The notes below the pieces were generated by a model, which was given only the letters and a program-made list of their open reading frames with translations, ran no database searches and had not been told where the DNA came from. Positions 39,448-60,990 of a DNA stretch of 64,000 bases are shown here, piece by piece. This DNA comes from Halichondria panicea. Taxonomy: Eukaryota; Porifera; Demospongiae; Suberitida; Halichondriidae. Positions within the stretch are counted from its first letter, which is position 1, and every line of letters starts with the position of its first letter. The stretch is taken from positions 10,154,632 through 10,218,631 of the forward strand of contig NC_087377.1 in assembly GCF_963675165.1 (NCBI RefSeq), written 5' to 3'. Made by a program: the position numbers and the translations under genes.

Positions 39448-41011
39448 GAGGCTGGTTCCGCTTGGCCTGACGCCCAGAGGTTACTCAAATTGTCCTTCTT
39501 GTTTTGCCCAAAAATCTTACATTAGGTATACATATATATGAGTATGAATGCACAGTTGCAGCTGCTACAACTCTGGGAAGAGGACCCTTTGCTCCAGTGG
39601 TAACAATCCGAACGGAAGAATACGGTAAAGTATTTGAGTGCACGTGTCTTTTGTTTTATACAACTTTCTTCCTCACTGACAGCCCCGTCTGGCCCACCCC
39701 TCACTGTTGTTGCTACTGCAATCAGCCATTTACCTCACATGGCAGCCACCCTCTGAAGAGAACGTGAATGGAATAATCAGGATGTACTTCATTGTGGTAG
39801 TGGATACAGTTACAGGAGAAAAATTAATGTTGAACACAACTGCTACATTCATAACAATTGGCAGTTTGCACCCATTTTATACCTATACCTTGTCGGTAGC
39901 AGCATTTACCACTGACACAGGACCTTTAGCAGAAGTATCTATCACTCTTCCCGAAGACGGTATGCAAAATTAAGTATCCAGTGTATATGTATGAGTACAC
40001 TTTGTTTAATTGAACGTTGTTTCTTAAGGTCTAACTGTTTAATTGAGTTGTCTGGTTTCTTCCAGAACCTAGTGACGTCCCACAAAACGTCACAATTTCT
40101 GCTTTGAGTCCTACTAGTGCTCTTATGTCTTGGTTCCCACCACCAATGGAACATCAAAATGGAATCATCATTGGCTTTATTGTCCATGTGTCTGGTGTGA
40201 ATACTGAAGAAGTGATAGAACGGACTGTGACCCAGTTTAGCAATGAAGTTTTTGAGCTACATCCGTTTTATTCGTACAGATTCTCTGTTGCTGCAGAAAC
40301 TATTGCTCCTGGGCCATTCAGTAATCCAATCACATTGCAACTACCAGAGTCAGGTATATATATATATATAATCTAAGCATGTAGTCTACAAAATATTTAT
40401 TTCCTTCAGCTCCGTCAGCCGCTGTTGAAAATCTCACCCTGGCAAATGCACTGGCTACTTCAGTTACTATAGGATGGTACCCTGCAAGCCCTTACCATTG
40501 GAATGGCACTCGCACAGTATGTTATTGAATACCAACTTATCAGATCTATTGATGAGCATTCGAGCTCAAAAGTTGTCGAGCCAGTTCTAAGCCAGTCTAT
40601 CCCATCAATTGGGCAGCCATTGGCTAACGAACAAAACCCAATCAGAGTCAATTCTCCCCTGCTTATGGAGACGGCACAACTTGATGGACTTGAGGAATAT
40701 TTCGTCTATTCAGTATCAATATACTTTGAAACAAGTGCTGGAAGAAGCCTCAGCAGTTCGTTCATCATGATTGAAACGTTACCATCAGGTACAGAGGCAG
40801 CTTCATATTATTGCTATAGAATAGAGTAATAGTTAAGTCTATACTTTGTTGCATTAGCTCCAAGTGGTCCTCCTACTTTGGTAAAGGCAGTGGCGTCCTC
40901 TATATCAGTGAGAATTGAGTGGATGCCTCCTTATGCAAGGAGTAGAAATGGTGTAATAGCAGGCTACACTGTCGACTTGACAAATCTTGAAACTATGGAA
41001 CAGCTAACATA

Positions 41012-48560: not shown

Positions 48561-51500
48561 TTAAATATAATTATAAAGTACAATACGATCCAAAACTTGT
48601 TGCTGGGTTTCTTGACGGAGTATCAATATGTAGGACATTACTTTCAGCATCGAAGTAAACACAATATCTTTAAAAGTGTCCACTTTTCTTTGAAAATTGT
48701 TTATAGCATGGTCATTTTCACACATATTAGTGTTTAAGAAGCAATCAAATTCAGTTCGGCGTCCATTAAAGACGAGACAGGGTACCATCGATTTTATCTC
48801 ACTGAGAGTAAATTCTATATCAACTTTTGATATTGTTGAGTTGTATAACAGGAGTCTTGAAACTGGCTTGATAACAGTCACCGTGGAACCATTCAAAATT
48901 AGTGTTTTTAATTCAGGGTGACGGTGAAGGCTATGCAACAATTGATACACTAGCACTTCTGAGTCTTCAAAACACAAGGTTATTTTGAGTATTTCTAATC
49001 CTACGTTCTGCTTCAGGCCTTCAGTCAACTGTTTTAGTGATTCAGACGATGCAATGTTCATGTTGAGTATCTTCAGGGATTGGTTATTTGCTAACAATAA
49101 CAGCAATCCATCTTGGTTAGAGTTAAGCAGGAAGTATGAATCTAGTTTTAAGTATCTCAGTGTTTTTGAAGATACTAATTGAAGAAGAAAACAATTGGTA
49201 AAACAGGCTCTTTTCTTTAAAATTTGTTTGAATTCAAAATAATAATGTGATGATCCGAAACACAAACTCAATGACCTTAGTTGTTTGAGCATGCACAAAT
49301 ATCCAGCAGTATGGCAGATGCATTCCAATGATTCTAATGCTTGTTCAATCGGAATTGGGCCGATCTCTAGGTGTAATAGTTCTATCGATGGTGAATCTTT
49401 GATAGCAAATGTGAAATCCTTAAATAATTGGATGGTCAATGGGGGCCCATTCATTTGATCCTCTATTGAGCTACCATTTAAATATACCATCCGGAGTGTT
49501 TTCTTACAATGTTTTATTAAGGGTATCAGCGACTTCTCTGTTACTTCGCTGTTCAAACCAACACCTTCTAAGTATATGTATTCGAGCTTATCCAAATTTT
49601 TGAGTATTAACTTGTTCTCATTCTCTGACGGTCCCCTGTAGAATACCGGCTCTTCCCATACATTGCCTTCCTTACAACCACAAAGGTATCTCAGATCTTT
49701 GAAAATGGATGTTTTAAACAAGGTCCACAGTACCTCCGGTAGATGATAAGGATAAGAACCATTGTGCTCATTTAAGTAATATAGTATGAATCTTCTGATT
49801 GAAGTTTTACCAAATGATCTCTCAAGATTGTTTACAAATATATCGAAACGAACAAGATCCTGTTGACTTTCTGTAATTATCAAAGAAACAAGTTCCCACA
49901 AGCAATCACTTTGTGAAATGAAATAGGTAACTATGTTTATTTTGAAGTTCCCACGACATCTGTACTCCAGCACTTGGTCTTGTATAGATTTAGCCAGTGC
50001 AGAACAAGCTAGCTGACTTTGAGCTTCGTGGACAAGATGAATACACAATTCAAATCGTTTTTTGTGCTGTTTTGTTGTTTCATGTATGTTGTGCATTCGT
50101 ATGTTTTGAGTTGAAAGAAATTCTATTATATTTTGACTTTCCATTTTTATGATTCCAGCAAAGAAGATCAACACCATCCTGAAGCGATCATTCAAAACAT
50201 TTTCTCTCAAAAATTCTGCTTGTTCTCTTTCTGTAAAGTTTTGTGCAACCCATGTTGCAGCTAGATACTCATGAATTGTTAGGTGAATGAACTGGAAAGT
50301 GATCTCTAATCCACTTTTGGTGAAGTTCTTTGTAGCTGTCAAAAGTCCCAACCTTGCTTCTTTCTCCGAAGGTACTTCCTCTTCCTGAAATGCTAGTTTA
50401 TCCTCCAGCAAGCTTTGATAAGCAATTTGCGATAATTCGTTCTTGTATCTTTCTATATCGGACTTTCGTGTGCAGTGAATATCCTTTAGTCTTTTGAATG
50501 TGTTCTTTAGAAACAATGTGAACAGTTCCGTAATCGTAGCTGGTATTGTACAGTTTTCAACTTTATAAATGTAAATTAGAATAGAACAATTGAGAGGTAT
50601 GTAACAAAATGAAAGAAGATCTTCTCTGTTTTTCAATTCCCCAATCAAATGCAATGCCTTAACTTCATCTTGTATACCAGCTCTAATACATTCTTCCATT
50701 TGTTGCTTGTTGAAACCAAGCACTTCGATGTGCCTAGTGAGAGTGCTCATTCTTTGCAGCTTTTCAGAAGCGTAAGGTCGTGAGCAAACAATAGCTGAAC
50801 ATTCTTGGAGGATTATACCTTTATATATGTCGAGAAAAAGCGATTCTTTCTCTCTTTCATGACGGCTTAGCTCATCATAGCCATCAAATAAGAAAATTAC
50901 ATCTGCCCCTCTTGTTTTCTGAACGTGCTTAACTACTGAAGATTCTATATCTGGATCGTCATGATAGAAAAGTTCTTCAATTTTCAAGGCTCTAGCTAAC
51001 TTTGTCACTCTAAGAGGAACGTACACAAGTAATGGGCAGTCTTTCAGGAGTTCTCCTTTTGCCCAATCATGGCATATCTTTCGACAAAGTGTAGTTTTGC
51101 CAACTCCAGGAGCTCCATCGATTAGAATCTTTAATGCTTGTTGACACTTATAACCTTTTTCAAGAGCTTTGTTAATTTCAACTGGTTCCTTTCTCCCTTG
51201 TATTTTATCTATCCTTCCTCTTAAAAGATCTCCAGAAATCAAAAACGGATCCCCAGCTCGTTCCGAACGCTCAATCAAGGCCAGATTGATGTAATGCTGC
51301 CCCATAGAGGGTGGCCACGGATCGTCTTGCAAAATCGGTTGCTTCAAGTAATGTTCTTTCAAGTGACAAGCATAAACACTAATAGGGCTTGATGGATCAA
51401 ACAGGTTTTCACCTGCATGTGAGTAAAACGTGGTCAACAAGCATACCACTTCCTATTGGGGCATGCATAGCTGTGGTTGATTACGTAACAAAAAGGTGAC

Positions 51501-53351
51501 GTGTAAAGTGTATGCATGCTTGCAGTCTAATATTTTATGGACGGCCATTTTTGACAGAAATAAATTGATAAATGCGCCATGCCGTTAATTAAAACCCGAT
51601 TGAAAAAATCTGAACACGTATAGAAAACGAGTTGAGAAAGCCCATTTAGTAAAAATGTATAGGAAACGTGTCTAGTTTATAATAATTATAATATAACTTT
51701 ATAGTAAACAGTCATGCACATTGAGTTTAGTAAACACGTCTATATTTGTTGATTAACCTTATACACATTGCATTTGAGGCCAGGTAGGTTAAAAGGCAAG
51801 GGTAAAATCAGAGGTCAAAATGACAGCTGGCACTGATTGGACTGAAGGGTCCAAAACGGACCAAAATTTAAGGCAAAAATTACAGAGATTACAACAAGAT
51901 TCTGAGACTCTACAAGATTCTAGCAAATATTTGGCCAGGCTCATAAGCTATGCACGTACTGCCAGCTGGCACTGATTTAATCCTTGTCCCGGCTTTAATT
52001 GCACCTGGTATTCTAATTATCGACTACACGTGCTTCCTATAAGCTCATTTGCTAGGCTAAATGCGCTTTGCCTATACATGTGTTCTCGTAAGTGCTCTCC
52101 CATTTGTCTTATACCTGTTCTCTATACGTATCTTTTTATTCTTAATCTGTACTACCAAGAGTAGATAAGAGTAAGAGTGTTGAACTGCTGTAGTAATCGT
52201 GGAGCCGCATTTGCCTTGACATGTGTCATCACTGTCGTCACTATATACATATTCAATTAATGAGTGCTGTTAAGTAAACTGTGGTCTGTGGTTTGTAGCA
52301 CTGAACTGTACAATCACAGCATGTGCAGTTTCTGGGAAGTGTTGCTAACATAACAAATTAGTACTGATTTACTATCCGGTGATGCCGCAGGAGCAGTACT
52401 ACATAATTATCTACCCATTTTTTTCACATAATGGCCCCATGCATATATTGTATAGATTGTTTCACCCTAAATTACAACAACAGTTTCATAGCTTCAAGAA
52501 TGTGTAAGTACTTCTTCGCTAATTGAAATACTCACCGTTGGATAGTTTTGTGTATGTCTCATCCATAGTCTGTAATAAATCACTGTACAGTACTTCATTC
52601 TGTTGAAGTATGTCCTTGAATTCTTTATATCGATAAGGATACTGCTTAACAACTCCCAGGATACTTTGGTAGAGACTTTTACCTTTAAGTTGATTGGTGT
52701 TCTTTACTTCGTTTATTTCTACAAGTGTTTCGTCAGAGATGAATCCTTTCGCCAGGAGAGCAGTAGCCATCGCTCGAGGGTCTTGTGATAAGCCGTGTAC
52801 TATCTTCTCAGAACAGCACACCATTGTTTGATGGGCATATACACACTCTGCAAGAAAGAGATTCATTTAAGTTAAAGTATGCACATAAGTATTATTAGTA
52901 ACATTTACTTACCCTCTGTTTCAGGTCCTGGGTTAGTTTCAACATCTCCAGCAAGAAGCAGAAGCATGGGCAAAACTATTATTGCTATAGAAACTATACC
53001 AAGATGCCATGTTATTGTTTCGTTGTGATCATGAATCAATACAGGGACACAAACATGCTTTACATCACTACATTTACGTGTAGTATCAGTGATTGAAATA
53101 TCCAATGCCACCAATACAGAAATGATTGTCATATAAAGCGTGTTTAGAAGTGAAAGCTCAGACCATACATTCATCAACAACAAACTAATCAAAAATGAAA
53201 TCACCATGATGATTATAGTAGTCAGAAATACCCGATCGCTCTGGGGCCAATCGCACTTGTACATTCGTTTGCCAGGACAAGTTTCAACTTTTCCGGCTCG
53301 TACATTGTTGAGTCCAGTTCGTACCCTCCACTCTTCAGCACTAATGGGCAT
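48561..53351 (-). CDS. NLR immune receptor with N-terminal membrane segment and 2A site
   Basis: Predicted 1200-codon reading frame (three exons: 53351-52913, 52847-52536, 51412-48561; 439+312+2852 nt is exactly 1201 codons, introns GT/AG). Exon 1: three hydrophobic helices (around residues 41-63, 68-87, 116-135), then GDVETNPGP (135-143), a canonical 2A ribosome-skipping motif. Exon 2 (147-250): an alpha-helical death-fold/CARD-like domain (GLSQDPRAMATALLAKGFIS, YPYRYKEFKDILQQN). Exon 3: NACHT with Walker A GAPGVGKTT (about 350-358) and Walker B VIFLFDGYDEL (about 422-432), winged-helix region, then leucine-rich repeats (e.g. LKILNMNIASSESLKQLTEG, LKTLILNG). NLRs sense danger signals in the cytosol. 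Skipping would release a 142-residue membrane peptide and a 1058-residue soluble NLR starting with Pro. No lesion seen. Confidence 0.9.
52923..52949 (-). other. 2A (StopGo/CHYSEL) peptide site GDVETNPGP
   Basis: Codons GGA GAT GTT GAA, then ACT AAC CCA GGA CCT, encode GDVETNPGP; the consensus is D(V/I)ExNPGP. The ribosome is known to skip the bond between the last Gly and Pro. It is preceded by a hydrophobic helix ending LLLLAG, as in the signal-like 2A sequences described in sea urchin NLR-type genes. The splice donor follows three complete codons after the Pro. Confidence 0.9.
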
Positions 53352-56084: not shown

Positions 56085-56245
56085 ACTACCAACTGCCAAC
56101 TCCCAACTGCGAACTACCAACTACCAACTACCAACTGCCAACTGCCAACTCCCAACTGCGAACTACCAAATACCAACTCCCAACTGCCAACTCCCAACTG
56201 CATGCGAACTACCAACTGCCAACTGCCAACTGCCAACTACCAACT
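56085..56245. repeat. Heptamer minisatellite (CCAACTN)
   Basis: About 22 units of CCAACTG, CCAACTA, CCAACTC and GCGAACTA follow each other. The three forms alternate in a higher-order pattern. The plus-strand frame with many LPTANCQ blocks is only the translation of this array. Confidence 0.8.
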
Positions 56246-57439: not shown

Positions 57440-58889
57440 AGCTGAAAGAAGTAACTAAGTCTTAGGTCACACTGTCCACATAAACATGACTTAGAACAAA
57501 TATCACAGCACAAGCAATTGAAACCGAGATCAACATGTTTGTAATTGTCAATATTTCGGAAAAGACTATCCCTTCTACAATCTGTAGTGTTGAAGTTTGA
57601 AGCATATTCTTTAATCTCATTATTAACTTGATGGTAAATTCTTGCCTTTAAAAGGGTTACACGTGATGGTTTACCATCTCGACCTGCTCTACCAGTCTCT
57701 TGTACATAGCTACTGATATCGTCTGACAGGCCAACATGAATGATTTACCGAATGTTGGGACAATCAACACCCATACCAAATGCCATAGTAGCTACAACAA
57801 TGCGAAGATTGCCATCACCCTTAAATAAACGAATGATTTCAGATTTATGGGCTGGATCAGTGACACTTGTAAACATGTCCACGAGGTGAAATTCAGGAAG
57901 ATCAGGTGCATCATCAGGATTTGTGAATGCAGCTCCAAGGTAATCCTTAAAGAAGAGGTACATGTCACCACACACTCCAAAAGAACGTCCATATATGATT
58001 GTTTTGGGAAACTTGTTTCTCTCGATTACCAATTTCTGGGCCAAGTTTTGGAATGTCTCTGGTATACTTTTGAACAATCCAACAGCATAAATCAAATTTG
58101 GGATTACTGGGACTCTCGTAATGACAAATGGGTTTCTTAGGCCAACAATACGAGAAATGAATGAAATGTCACTTCGGGTAGCTGTTGCTGTTAGCGCCAT
58201 CACATGAACTGATGTTGAAATGAGGCTGCGCACTTCTCTAATTCTCAACAGCATTTGCCTGAAAGTCTCACCCCTGCAATAATATTATTGGTACACATGT
58301 TAATAAAAAACAATGAGTCAAATACATACCATTTCTTCACACAATGAACTTCATCGATTATCAAAGCCTTGAGTCTATTAGCATACACATCTCCCCCCAG
58401 AAGTCTTCTCCAATGCTTCTTGCTGATGATCATTTCAGGTGTAAAGAATACTAGCTGATACTTTCCATGGAAGATCGCATCCATTGTAGCTGCATCAGAC
58501 ATCTCGCCCGAGACATATGTGCTAGATGCCTTTAGAACAATAGATGGCTACCTATATATAGAATAAAAGCATCCAGCTTAGAATGATGTAGTTACGTGTA
58601 AACAGCTCATATTCCCATGTACGTATAATTATATGTATGTTCTATCTAGCCTTACATACCTGATCATGAATGATGGCCAGCAGAGGAGTGACTACTTACT
58701 ACAATAGAATAACCTTTCTCCTTCTCCAATATTTTGTCAAATGCTGCAGGCAAACAAGCATAGCAAAGGCTCTTTCCAAATCCAGTAGGCAATACAGCAA
58801 GACATCTCTGCCTCTCAGAAAAGAAGTGACTACTTCCAAGCTCGTTAGCAGCTTCTGTGACAGCTTGTGTAACTTTCTCCATTTTGCTC
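57440..58889 (-). pseudogene. RecQ-like DNA helicase, nearly complete but interrupted
   Basis: Superfamily 2 helicase in at least three exons. Exon A (58889-58665): Walker A LPTGFGKSLCYACLP and motif Ia (TPLLAIIHDQ) after a frame break. Exon B (about 58549-58331): YVSGEMSDAAT, FFTPEM and the DEVH box LIIDEVHCVKKW. Exon C (58263 to about 57440), after a GCAG acceptor: LTATATR (motif III), TIIYGRS (IV), IVVATMAFGMGVDCPNIR (V), QETGRAGRDG (VI), then a zinc-binding CCDICSKSCLCGQC. A stop codon sits just after CPNIR where relatives have Gln. With one frame break and one stop it is probably a recently dead copy, unless the stop is a sequencing error. The N-terminal Q motif is replaced by unrelated sequence. 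A fragment of a relative is at 47261. Confidence 0.75.
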
Positions 58890-59056: not shown

Positions 59057-59898
59057 AAGCACAGGTAGAGTGTAGGCAGCAGGTAAAGGATCATGAAAAT
59101 TGAAAACGAAATAATATATGTTTAGTTCATGGGTGTAGCCTCACAGCAAATGCCCCAAATGGGAGTGGTCAGAAGACAGTTGAAAAATAAAACAAGACAA
59201 CTCAACTGCCAAGGTACTAGGTCTGCAGTACGTGTATTAAATTACTTGTAGGTAAAACTAAGATATCATTATAATTGTTCCAATGATCCAGTCTGTGTTT
59301 AATATAGTCACGTCTCAACTAATTGGCATTTGATAAGATACTGATTTGAGGGCCAGGGGCGTGAGCGTGGCAGTGGAGGGTCTAGTCTACGTCTGTGTCC
59401 ACCTCCATATTCGGTGTGACACATGCCAGTTGATCCCGACCATTGATCTACTTTGGTCAGATACTACGTACATAGTCCATAATTATTCTAAGGCAAATTA
59501 CTTGGTGAAAGCATAATAGATAGAAAAGAGAGGGATTGGCAATAGAAGTGGTTCACGTAATGTTTTACATTGAAGTCTACGTAACTGTAGTGCCGGGACC
59601 ATCCGTATTTCGCTCTAAAACTCCCACGAAACATTTTGACTTTAACAGCAGAACTTCTCACGGACGCGACTTTTTACAGACAGAACTTATTATTCACGAA
59701 TCATTCATGTATTAGCTTCCACGTAGGAAATAAGCATCGATTAAAACCGCGGGGGAACACGGATGGTGCCACAAGGGTGCTTTGTTTCCAATCCCTCTCT
59801 CTTAACTATCTACGCATGTGAACACTTATTGGTTACTATATAGGATGGAATTTATTGTAAATACATCGATCACCCACGCATGCACACATACACACAGA
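59057..59898. other. Upstream region of the adaptor gene
   Basis: No gene. Parts of it (59078-59145 and 59725-59898) are repeated at 36172-36240 and 38338-38502, flanking the LINE there. Confidence 0.55.
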
Positions 59899-60990
59899 AT
59901 GGCGCGTGTCACAATACAAAACCTCAAAGAACACACTGGAGTTACAGACAGACAGCTCAATCTCCAATGTCTCGACCAACATTTTGACAAGCTAGCCCAA
60001 AAAATACCCAACTGGTTGTCATTAGCGATGACTCTCGACTTGGAGGAGTACCAACAACAAGCCATCAGGGTTGACCCTCTTTTAGATTATCTGCACAAAA
60101 CCGTGGAGGTACTAAAGGTATGGAAGAAGAATAGCGTACGAGAGGCCACGTATTTGAGGCTGGTGGAAGCTTGCCTGGAGATGAGTAATGCACTGTTGGC
60201 TGGAGAGGTCTGCACTTTGGCAAAATGTGAGTGACATAGATATAATTATAGTCACAATGGCAAAATTCATACCCTCAGGTGCCAGGTTTAATATATGCAA
60301 AGCGAGGCCCAAATAACTTTTCGGCATTGGTTAAGATCAGCTGCAATCATATTTTTCTTCACTTACTGAGCATTACATGTCAGTCAGTGTAGGGTGAAGC
60401 ACCCCATGACGATTATCCTGTTCACATGACTCAAAATGTTTCTCAAAATACTGTATAGCGGGAAAGTATCGCCATTGGCTCCAGAGCTCTCAGCAAAAAT
60501 TTACTTGGGTTCTAATAATTATTCGCGTTTCAATGCCAGGAACACCCCACCAATAGCTTTTCATGTGAAATACCAGTTTTAATTTTTGCGTTAACTGTCT
60601 GCCCACGGAAATTGTGCACTTCACGAAAATTTCCCGCTGTGCTGGTCATACTTGTAATCATAATCAGATTTTCAGACAATAAATATTCTCTGTGAATCAG
60701 TTACTTTATATAGATCCTCGATCTTTGCAAAAGGTGAAGTTACCCTCCAAGCTGGTCTCAAAATGTGTTCAACCGGCCACATTTTAATATTATTGTTGAT
60801 GAAATTGGCGAACGCCGCCAAACGTACGTGTTTGTTCTCAGTCGCTAGTCCTAATGGATTATTGAAGCATTACGTTTGAGTGATTGTATGATTGGATTTT
60901 ACGTTTGACTACAGACAACCCATCGATGTAATTCTTACTTCCACATTGCAAACTTGTATTTATTTAATATCCTCTACAACTCCCCCCCCC

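What the first reader, a model, noticed from the sequence alone, without database searches (positions are those of the whole stretch)
52900..53351. Canonical 2A ribosome-skipping motif in the first exon of an NLR
The exon encodes GDVETNPGP, an exact match to the 2A consensus D(V/I)ExNPGP, directly after a hydrophobic helix. The downstream 1058 residues form an otherwise complete NLR (death-fold, NACHT, LRR). 2A-like sequences have been described in NLR-type genes of sea urchin and in sponge data, so the family of the trick is known; this gene, and its pairing with a three-helix membrane peptide, may not be. The consequence would be one mRNA giving two proteins, possibly sent to different places.
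Basis: partly seen in the sequence, partly recalled or inferred. Interest (0 to 1): 0.9.

Follow-up and report, generated by a model that had tools for sequence, protein, structure and literature searches.

The report
Self-splitting first exon of immune receptors
The first exon of this immune-receptor gene carries a signal that should make the ribosome release a small membrane peptide and then make the receptor as a second protein, and exons of the same kind stand in front of many other death-fold genes in this genome.

Summary
On the minus strand exon 1 (53351-52913) ends in LLLLAGDVETNPGP, an exact StopGo/2A core; a phase-1 donor follows 10 bases later. Exon 2 is CARD-like (AlphaFold pLDDT 93.7); exon 3 is NACHT with an LRR-type tail. 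Chance is excluded: 116 D(V/I)ExNPGP sites in this genome, 0 for the reversed pattern.

It is not a one-off. Of 114 placed sites, 36 lie within 5 kb upstream of a listed same-strand NACHT; none lies within 5 kb on the wrong side or opposite strand. Of 69 sites read, 54 precede a DEATH- or CARD-like exon, before NACHT, ankyrin or other parts. In eight homologues of this exon that reach the site, the last 17 residues are 97% identical (132/136), against 73% (595/816) upstream.

Most likely, StopGo between Gly142 and Pro143 yields a membrane peptide plus a separate CARD-NACHT-LRR receptor, with some uncleaved fusion. N-terminal 2As on NLRs are known from sea urchin (26 residues, dual targeting). 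Different here: a longer exon (about 75-150 residues) with its own conserved WRxRxG start in one large family, and use across death-fold genes besides NLRs. Splicing, StopGo activity and localisation are inferred, not shown.

The parts
52913..53351 (-). Exon 1 (first coding exon): membrane-peptide + StopGo exon, residues 1-146 plus one base of the next codon
   Evidence: Open frame from ATG 53351, donor GTAAGT at 52912; 8 homologues that reach the site, 70-79% identical
53313..53330 (-). N-terminal motif WRVRTG (family form WRARIG), residues 8-13
   Evidence: WRxRxG in the first 80 residues of 77 of 120 listed homologues; alignments A1-A3
53175..53231 (-). Hydrophobic segment 1, residues 41-59
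   Evidence: Kyte-Doolittle; low-confidence helix 37-60
53091..53147 (-). Hydrophobic segment 2, residues 69-87
   Evidence: Kyte-Doolittle; low-confidence helix 63-91
52947..53003 (-). Hydrophobic segment 3, residues 117-135, ending in the StopGo upstream hexapeptide LLLLAG
   Evidence: Kyte-Doolittle; LLLLAG precedes the core in 63 of 114 StopGo-bearing homologues
52923..52946 (-). StopGo/2A core DVETNPGP, residues 136-143; predicted peptide-bond skip Gly142|Pro143
   Evidence: 62 of 64 core residues identical in 8 homologues, the 2 differences being Asp to Asn in first place
52848..52912 (-). Intron 1, phase 1 (GTAAGT ... TTGCAG)
   Evidence: splice-site consensus and phase only, no transcript
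52536..52847 (-). Exon 2: CARD-like domain
51413..52535 (-). Intron 2, phase 1
48561..51412 (-). Exon 3: NACHT and LRR-type C-terminal part, including the stop codon
   Evidence: PF05729 E 7.9e-22 in ORF 48561-51452; profile A7 hits NLRP3 over the NACHT and LRRC34/DRC5 at the C-terminus
50673..51128 (-). NACHT domain (Pfam match, residues 109-260 of the ORF)
48710..49310 (-). LRR-type region (approximate place, read off profile positions 738-942)
   Evidence: no Pfam LRR hit; motif count not above shuffles (9 against 5.6, reached by 10% of shuffles)

Best explanation
Exon 1 is a membrane-peptide/StopGo exon. The mRNA joins it in frame (phase 1) to a CARD exon and a NACHT-LRR exon. While the ribosome makes the last hydrophobic helix and DVETNPG, the nascent chain in the exit tunnel blocks the Gly142-Pro143 bond: the 142-residue peptide is released and the ribosome goes on from Pro143, making a 1058-residue CARD-NACHT-LRR receptor without a membrane anchor. 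Hydrophobic segments 1 and 2 should have left the ribosome before the skip, so the peptide probably goes to the ER membrane whether or not the skip happens; the receptor is then cytosolic, apart from a fraction left fused and membrane-anchored where the skip fails. Shown: motif, gene anatomy, conservation, recurrence before death-fold exons. Inferred: splicing, StopGo activity, topology, destinations, function of the peptide.
For: Exact core plus leucine-rich hexapeptide LLLLAG. L-rich motifs ending in (A/S/C)G go with D in first place, and the L-rich motif tested supported StopGo in vitro (PMC12846837, section 10). 116 core matches in the genome, 0 reversed. 36 of 114 placed sites have a listed NACHT within 5 kb downstream on the same strand, 0 upstream, 0 opposite; at 4 kb 35 against a mean of 0.66 (maximum 4) for random placement. 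54 of 69 sites read precede DEATH- (40) or CARD-like (14) exons, none on the opposite strand. In 56 of 65 non-retrotransposon sites a donor-like GT stands within 12 codons, all in phase 1. Last 17 residues of exon 1 97% identical against 73% upstream in 8 homologues. The nearest NACHT relatives other than the damaged local copy (C15 cluster, 41-43%) have a 2A exon upstream in 3 of 4 cases. Sea urchin precedent measured (PMC4981915).
Against: No transcript, peptide or translation assay. The search for proteins with exons 1+2 joined found none (0 of 1132 candidates), and in the 120 listed hits none covered more than 79% of the query, i.e. exon 3 alone. The search profile for exon-1 homologues contained the 2A itself; 6 of 120 listed lack it. 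Many sites are recent tandem copies and not independent. 15 of 69 sites read show no death-fold exon. P15 is Thr, whereas the viral L-rich motifs associate with Ser.
Confidence: 0.7

Rival explanations
1. Sea-urchin-type dual targeting alone: the upstream stretch has no function of its own after release and serves only as a signal that sends the unskipped fraction to the secretory pathway; the point of the system is the ratio of membrane to cytosolic receptor.
For: SpNLR2A6 gave about 80% recoding in vitro, with the unskipped form secreted (PMC4981915). Signal-like helix directly before the core here too.
Against: The sea urchin sequences are 26 residues, so the whole signal is still inside the ribosome at the skip; here two further hydrophobic segments precede it, and the upstream part, WRxRxG included, is conserved (73% in the 8 homologues; 77 of 120 with WRxRxG), which a bare signal would not need.
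Confidence: 0.2
2. The StopGo motif is weak or inactive here and the gene makes a membrane-anchored NLR, as proposed for sponges and sea anemones on domain predictions.
For: Transmembrane domains reported in NLR architectures of Dysidea avara and, per that paper, Amphimedon (PMC12909245), in a MAMP-induced D. avara NLR (PMC6208332) and in Actiniaria (PMC5094078). StopGo depends on more than 14 residues of context (PMC12846837).
Against: The core is the most conserved stretch of the exon; all 17 open full-length copies of the C5-type exon keep it, against 2 of 5 broken ones (the copies are not independent). A plain anchor needs no NPGP.
Confidence: 0.08
3. Exon 1 is a retrotransposon remnant or an unrelated upstream ORF that is not part of the NLR mRNA.
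For: 2A cores also occur before PHD plus endonuclease frames of non-LTR type in this genome (L007, L023 by Pfam; L009 and L011 begin alike). No spliced transcript seen.
Against: The WRxRxG exon is a different sequence family from those elements; its position, strand and splice phase before death-fold exons repeat across clusters.
Confidence: 0.02

Closest known systems
Strongylocentrotus purpuratus NLR N-terminal 2A signal sequences (SpNLR2A; Roulston et al. 2016, PMC4981915)
   Same: 2A core at the N-terminus of DEATH-NACHT-LRR genes, directly after a hydrophobic signal-like helix; many genes of the genome (85 of 241 by their count).
   Different: 26 residues at the N-terminus against 143 to the core's end here (about 75-150 in the WRxRxG family); no WRxRxG start or extra hydrophobic segments described in the passages read; here also before CARD NLRs, ankyrin and other death-fold genes. 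The sea urchin activity is measured, this one is not.
Viral StopGo with L-rich upstream motif (motifs 2/6 of Li et al. 2026, PMC12846837)
   Same: Hexapeptide of the LLLL(A/S)G kind and D(V/I)ExNPGP core.
   Different: Cellular gene, end of a first exon, phase-1 donor right after; position 15 is Thr.
Non-LTR retrotransposon 2A
   Same: Same core; present in the same genome before PHD/endonuclease frames (L007, L023).
   Different: No RT or endonuclease after the window's exon; different upstream sequence; spliced gene with introns.
Sponge and sea anemone 'membrane-bound NLRs' (PMC12909245, PMC5094078)
   Same: Predicted transmembrane segments attached to NACHT receptors.
   Different: Those reports, in the passages read, take the segments as anchors; here a StopGo core separates them from the receptor.

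Membership tests
StopGo/2A element | Core (D/G/C/N)(V/I)ExNPGP | tested here: met
   DVETNPGP at 52946-52923
StopGo/2A element | Suitable upstream context (L-rich ending in (A/S/C)G for D cores) | tested here: met
   LLLLAG against the motifs described in PMC12846837 section 10
StopGo/2A element | Two separate products from one frame, dependent on the final proline | not testable with these tools
   Needs in vitro translation
NLR (NACHT-LRR), CARD type | NACHT domain | tested here: met
   PF05729 E 7.9e-22, 78.3 bits against cut-off 26.7
NLR (NACHT-LRR), CARD type | C-terminal LRRs | tested here: inconclusive
   Family profile hits LRRC34 and DRC5; no Pfam LRR; motif count not above shuffles
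NLR (NACHT-LRR), CARD type | N-terminal CARD | tested here: met
Sea-urchin-type 2A signal sequence | Short (26-residue) N-terminal signal that is also the 2A | tested here: not met
   The core ends at residue 143; two more hydrophobic segments upstream
Sea-urchin-type 2A signal sequence | Partition of one product between cytosol and secretory pathway | not testable with these tools
   Needs localisation experiments
Non-LTR retrotransposon 2A | Endonuclease or reverse transcriptase in the downstream frame | tested here: not met
   Downstream exons are CARD-like and NACHT

The most novel reading that the evidence does not exclude
A genome-wide StopGo exon: an animal uses a transferable, phase-1 first exon that makes its own membrane protein (conserved WRxRxG start, multi-pass) and releases it by StopGo ahead of death-fold immune proteins of several kinds. 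The upstream peptide is a functional partner or sensor made in fixed ratio with each receptor, and at least some 'membrane-bound NLRs' of early animals are really such pairs.
Probability: 0.35. Interest if true: 0.87.

Novelty: new variant of a known kind. Interest (0 to 1): 0.74.

Why it matters
StopGo is described as used only rarely in cellular genes (PMC12846837); one genome with dozens of immune genes led by such an exon would be a large natural cellular use. It would mean that gene models and domain predictions which show a 'membrane NLR' may join two proteins that are never joined in the cell, which a single in vitro translation could test. It also gives a natural series of StopGo variants before receptors, useful for asking whether the ratio of fused to free receptor is tuned.

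Tried and rejected
Full-length spliced relatives: a search with the whole 1200-residue protein gave 522 hits, 120 listed, covering at most 79%; a search on residues 1-250 gave none of 1132. So no spliced homologue was seen; most hits have the length and coverage of a single exon.

The weak SecE hit of exon 1 (E 0.042, below cut-off) and the PTEN2_C2 and HincII hits were set aside as below cut-off. Pfam finds nothing in the post-2A exons of eight tested loci; only the C15 exon reaches the Death cut-off. The profile of 11 such exons hits PIDD, FADD and CRADD chains (all 15 hits at E <= 1).

The C10/C12/C6:716597-type exons ('LGIP...L', L067, L072, L094, L095) look death-like to me but gave no profile hit and no PDB hit: left unassigned. 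Other sites without a death-fold hit: L090 and L092 (only 250 bases fetched after the motif), L010, L096, L098, L099, L101. L099 has a sub-threshold bZIP match.

In one search my donor positions were mis-offset by a script error and its phase counts must be ignored; one search replaces them. In one search the first GT in L039 and L048 (position 1) may not be the real donor (another at position 25 is also phase 1), and that in L098 lies in a long open frame. The Fisher test counted 4 broken copies; recounted it is 2 of 5 broken copies with the core, and the copies are not independent. Nine further rows are partial matches and were left out; one of them (C4:4050687) has no listed 2A near it.

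Conservation test: 3 of 11 homologues were dropped before the count (P0164 and P0177 change frame before the site, P0206 ends before it). P0150 is the damaged local copy (C1:10.3 Mb) itself.

Literature: no paper on 2A in sponge NLRs was found; the library holds open-licence papers only. Rao et al. 2025 (Cell Rep, survey of eukaryotic 2As; seen only as a reference line) and Yuen et al. 2014 (sponge NLRs) are not held, so either may already report part of this. PMC5890393 holds '2A-like' only in gene names.

Full report
What is there. The minus strand holds a three-exon gene. Exon 1 (53351-52913, 439 bases) starts at an ATG and ends 10 bases after the codons for DVETNPGP, at a GTAAGT donor; exon 2 is 52847-52536 (312 bases); exon 3 is 51412-48561 (2852 bases). 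Both introns are phase 1. The product would be 1200 residues, with Gly142|Pro143 as the expected break and 1058 residues after it. The motif is the only one in the six frames of the window. Three hydrophobic segments precede it; the last, HLGIVSIAIIVLPMLLLLAG, runs straight into the core.

More than chance. The whole genome (131 Mb, 39 contigs) has 116 matches to D(V/I/M)ExNPGP and none to the pattern read backwards; a variant with Glu changed to Gln and a wider first residue has 4. I could place 114 of the 116 (lists are capped at 100).

A genome-wide association. From three searches (only best candidates are scored, so lower bounds) I listed 165 distinct NACHT places. Of the 114 sites, 36 have one starting within 5 kb downstream on the same strand, 0 within 5 kb upstream, 0 on the opposite strand; at 4 kb the count is 35 against a mean of 0.66 and a maximum of 4 in 1000 random placements; at 10 kb it is 37, 9 and 0. 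Seen from the receptors, 36 of 165 listed NACHT places have a 2A upstream; in the C14 cluster (0.48-1.65 Mb) it was 26 of the 27 listed. The nearest NACHT relatives of the window gene, other than its damaged local copy, are in a C15 cluster (41-43%); three of those four have a 2A exon upstream, beginning (M..)TWRARIGLY in the two read.

Not only NLRs. I read DNA around 69 distinct sites (64 of the other 113 were chosen by listing order, cluster or interest, so this is not a random sample). Profiles of 11 DEATH-like and 5 CARD-like post-2A exons hit ORFs downstream of 54 of the 69 (40 DEATH, 14 CARD), on the opposite strand at none, and upstream at 3, all inside the tight C2 cluster; 14 of the 54 sites had contributed sequences to the profiles, 40 had not, though many of those are close copies. 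The DEATH profile finds PIDD, FADD and CRADD chains in the PDB (all 15 hits at E <= 1, best 1.2e-4). Further downstream are NACHT (C1, C14, C15), ankyrin repeats (L069, L073) and, at L070, an astacin/matrixin-like metallopeptidase ORF; that these belong to the same genes is inferred from order and strand. The 15 sites without a hit include four non-LTR-like elements (PHD plus endonuclease by Pfam in L007 and L023; L009 and L011 begin alike), four of an unassigned type, two with only 250 bases read, and five others.

Common splice design. In 65 sites (69 less the four elements) a donor-like GTRNK stands within 12 codons after NPGP in 56, and the first is in phase 1 in all 56. The copies are not independent, but the C1, C2, C5/C6/C10, C3/C4/C11, C14, C15 and C13 types all agree. 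So the break point sits at the end of an exon that can be joined to other phase-1 exons: in the window it precedes a CARD, in C15 and C5 relatives of the same WRxRxG family a DEATH-like exon.

Conservation. A profile of eight exon-1 sequences found 122 proteins, 120 listed; 114 of them carry a StopGo-like core, 77 a WRxRxG near the start, 72 both. Fifteen read DVERNPGP, which none of the 114 placed sites of this genome does, so at least one other genome has the family. Of 11 close homologues of the window exon, eight reach the site: the last 17 residues (LLLLAGDVETNPGPETE) are identical in 132 of 136 places, the core in 62 of 64 (two Asp to Asn, a form listed as functional in PMC12846837), the upstream part in 595 of 816. 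Of the other three, two change frame before the site and one ends before it. Among full-length copies of the C5-type exon, 17 of 17 open ones keep an exact core, against 2 of 5 with stops or frame breaks. The profile and the query both contained the core, which favours copies that have it.

How it most likely works. Li et al. 2026 (PMC12846837; I read the outline, sections 10 and 14 and passages) show that leucine-rich upstream motifs ending in (A/S/C)G go with a D core and that a tested L-rich motif supports StopGo in vitro. Roulston et al. 2016 (PMC4981915; section 2 part 1 and passages) found N-terminal 2As in 85 of 241 sea urchin NLRs, tested a 26-residue one (about 80% recoding in vitro) and showed that the uncleaved product is secreted and the cleaved one cytosolic. 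By the same logic the window gene should give a membrane peptide of 142 residues and a CARD-NACHT-LRR receptor starting PETEEC. One difference follows from length: a ribosome hides roughly 35-40 residues (recalled), so a 26-residue signal is hidden when the skip happens, while here segments 1 and 2 are already outside. The peptide should therefore be membrane-targeted even when the skip succeeds. This step is inference. The conserved WRxRxG start, far from the core, suggests that the peptide has its own job.

What it may explain. Transmembrane segments in sponge NLR architectures have been read as membrane-bound NLRs (PMC12909245, section 24, which credits Amphimedon work I could not read), including one among D. 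avara NLRs raised by microbial cues (PMC6208332, passages), and proposed in Actiniaria (PMC5094078, passages). None of these passages mentions 2A. Whether those genes have NPGP was not tested here.

Limits. No transcript or protein evidence; no spliced homologue was found. A 2025 survey of eukaryotic 2As (Rao et al.) was not readable and may already list such genes.

Noticed in passing
G000 C1:10306483-10308332 (minus), L002/L035: Damaged local copy of the window gene about 100 kb away: 2A exon 77% identical with the core intact, NACHT exon 64% with 1 TAG and 3 TAA.
   Followed up: partly
window 59806-60231 (+): Open frame with a Pfam Death domain (E 7.8e-7, above cut-off), so another death-fold gene stands close upstream on the other strand.
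   Followed up: no
window 57748-58547 (-): Helicase pieces (DEAD E 6.4e-5, Helicase_C E 3.4e-4, both below their cut-offs), RecQ-like by eye, in two adjoining frames.
   Followed up: no
window 40047-40373 (+): Fibronectin type III domain (E 4.8e-11).
   Followed up: no
window about 56085-56245: Array of CCAACTG/CCAACTA-type short repeats (seen).
   Followed up: no
L070 (G000 C7:4930667): 2A followed in the same frame by a CARD-like domain, with an astacin/matrixin-type metallopeptidase ORF downstream: an unusual possible architecture.
   Followed up: partly
P0224 (unnamed source): A 219-residue protein with two StopGo cores 24 residues apart before a zinc-finger-like stretch.
   Followed up: no
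G000 C1:4741111, C1:4781053, C1:8762162, C13:2878457: Four copies of DIQSNPGP (Glu to Gln), a form reported as partly active in earlier work cited in PMC12846837; context not read.
   Followed up: no
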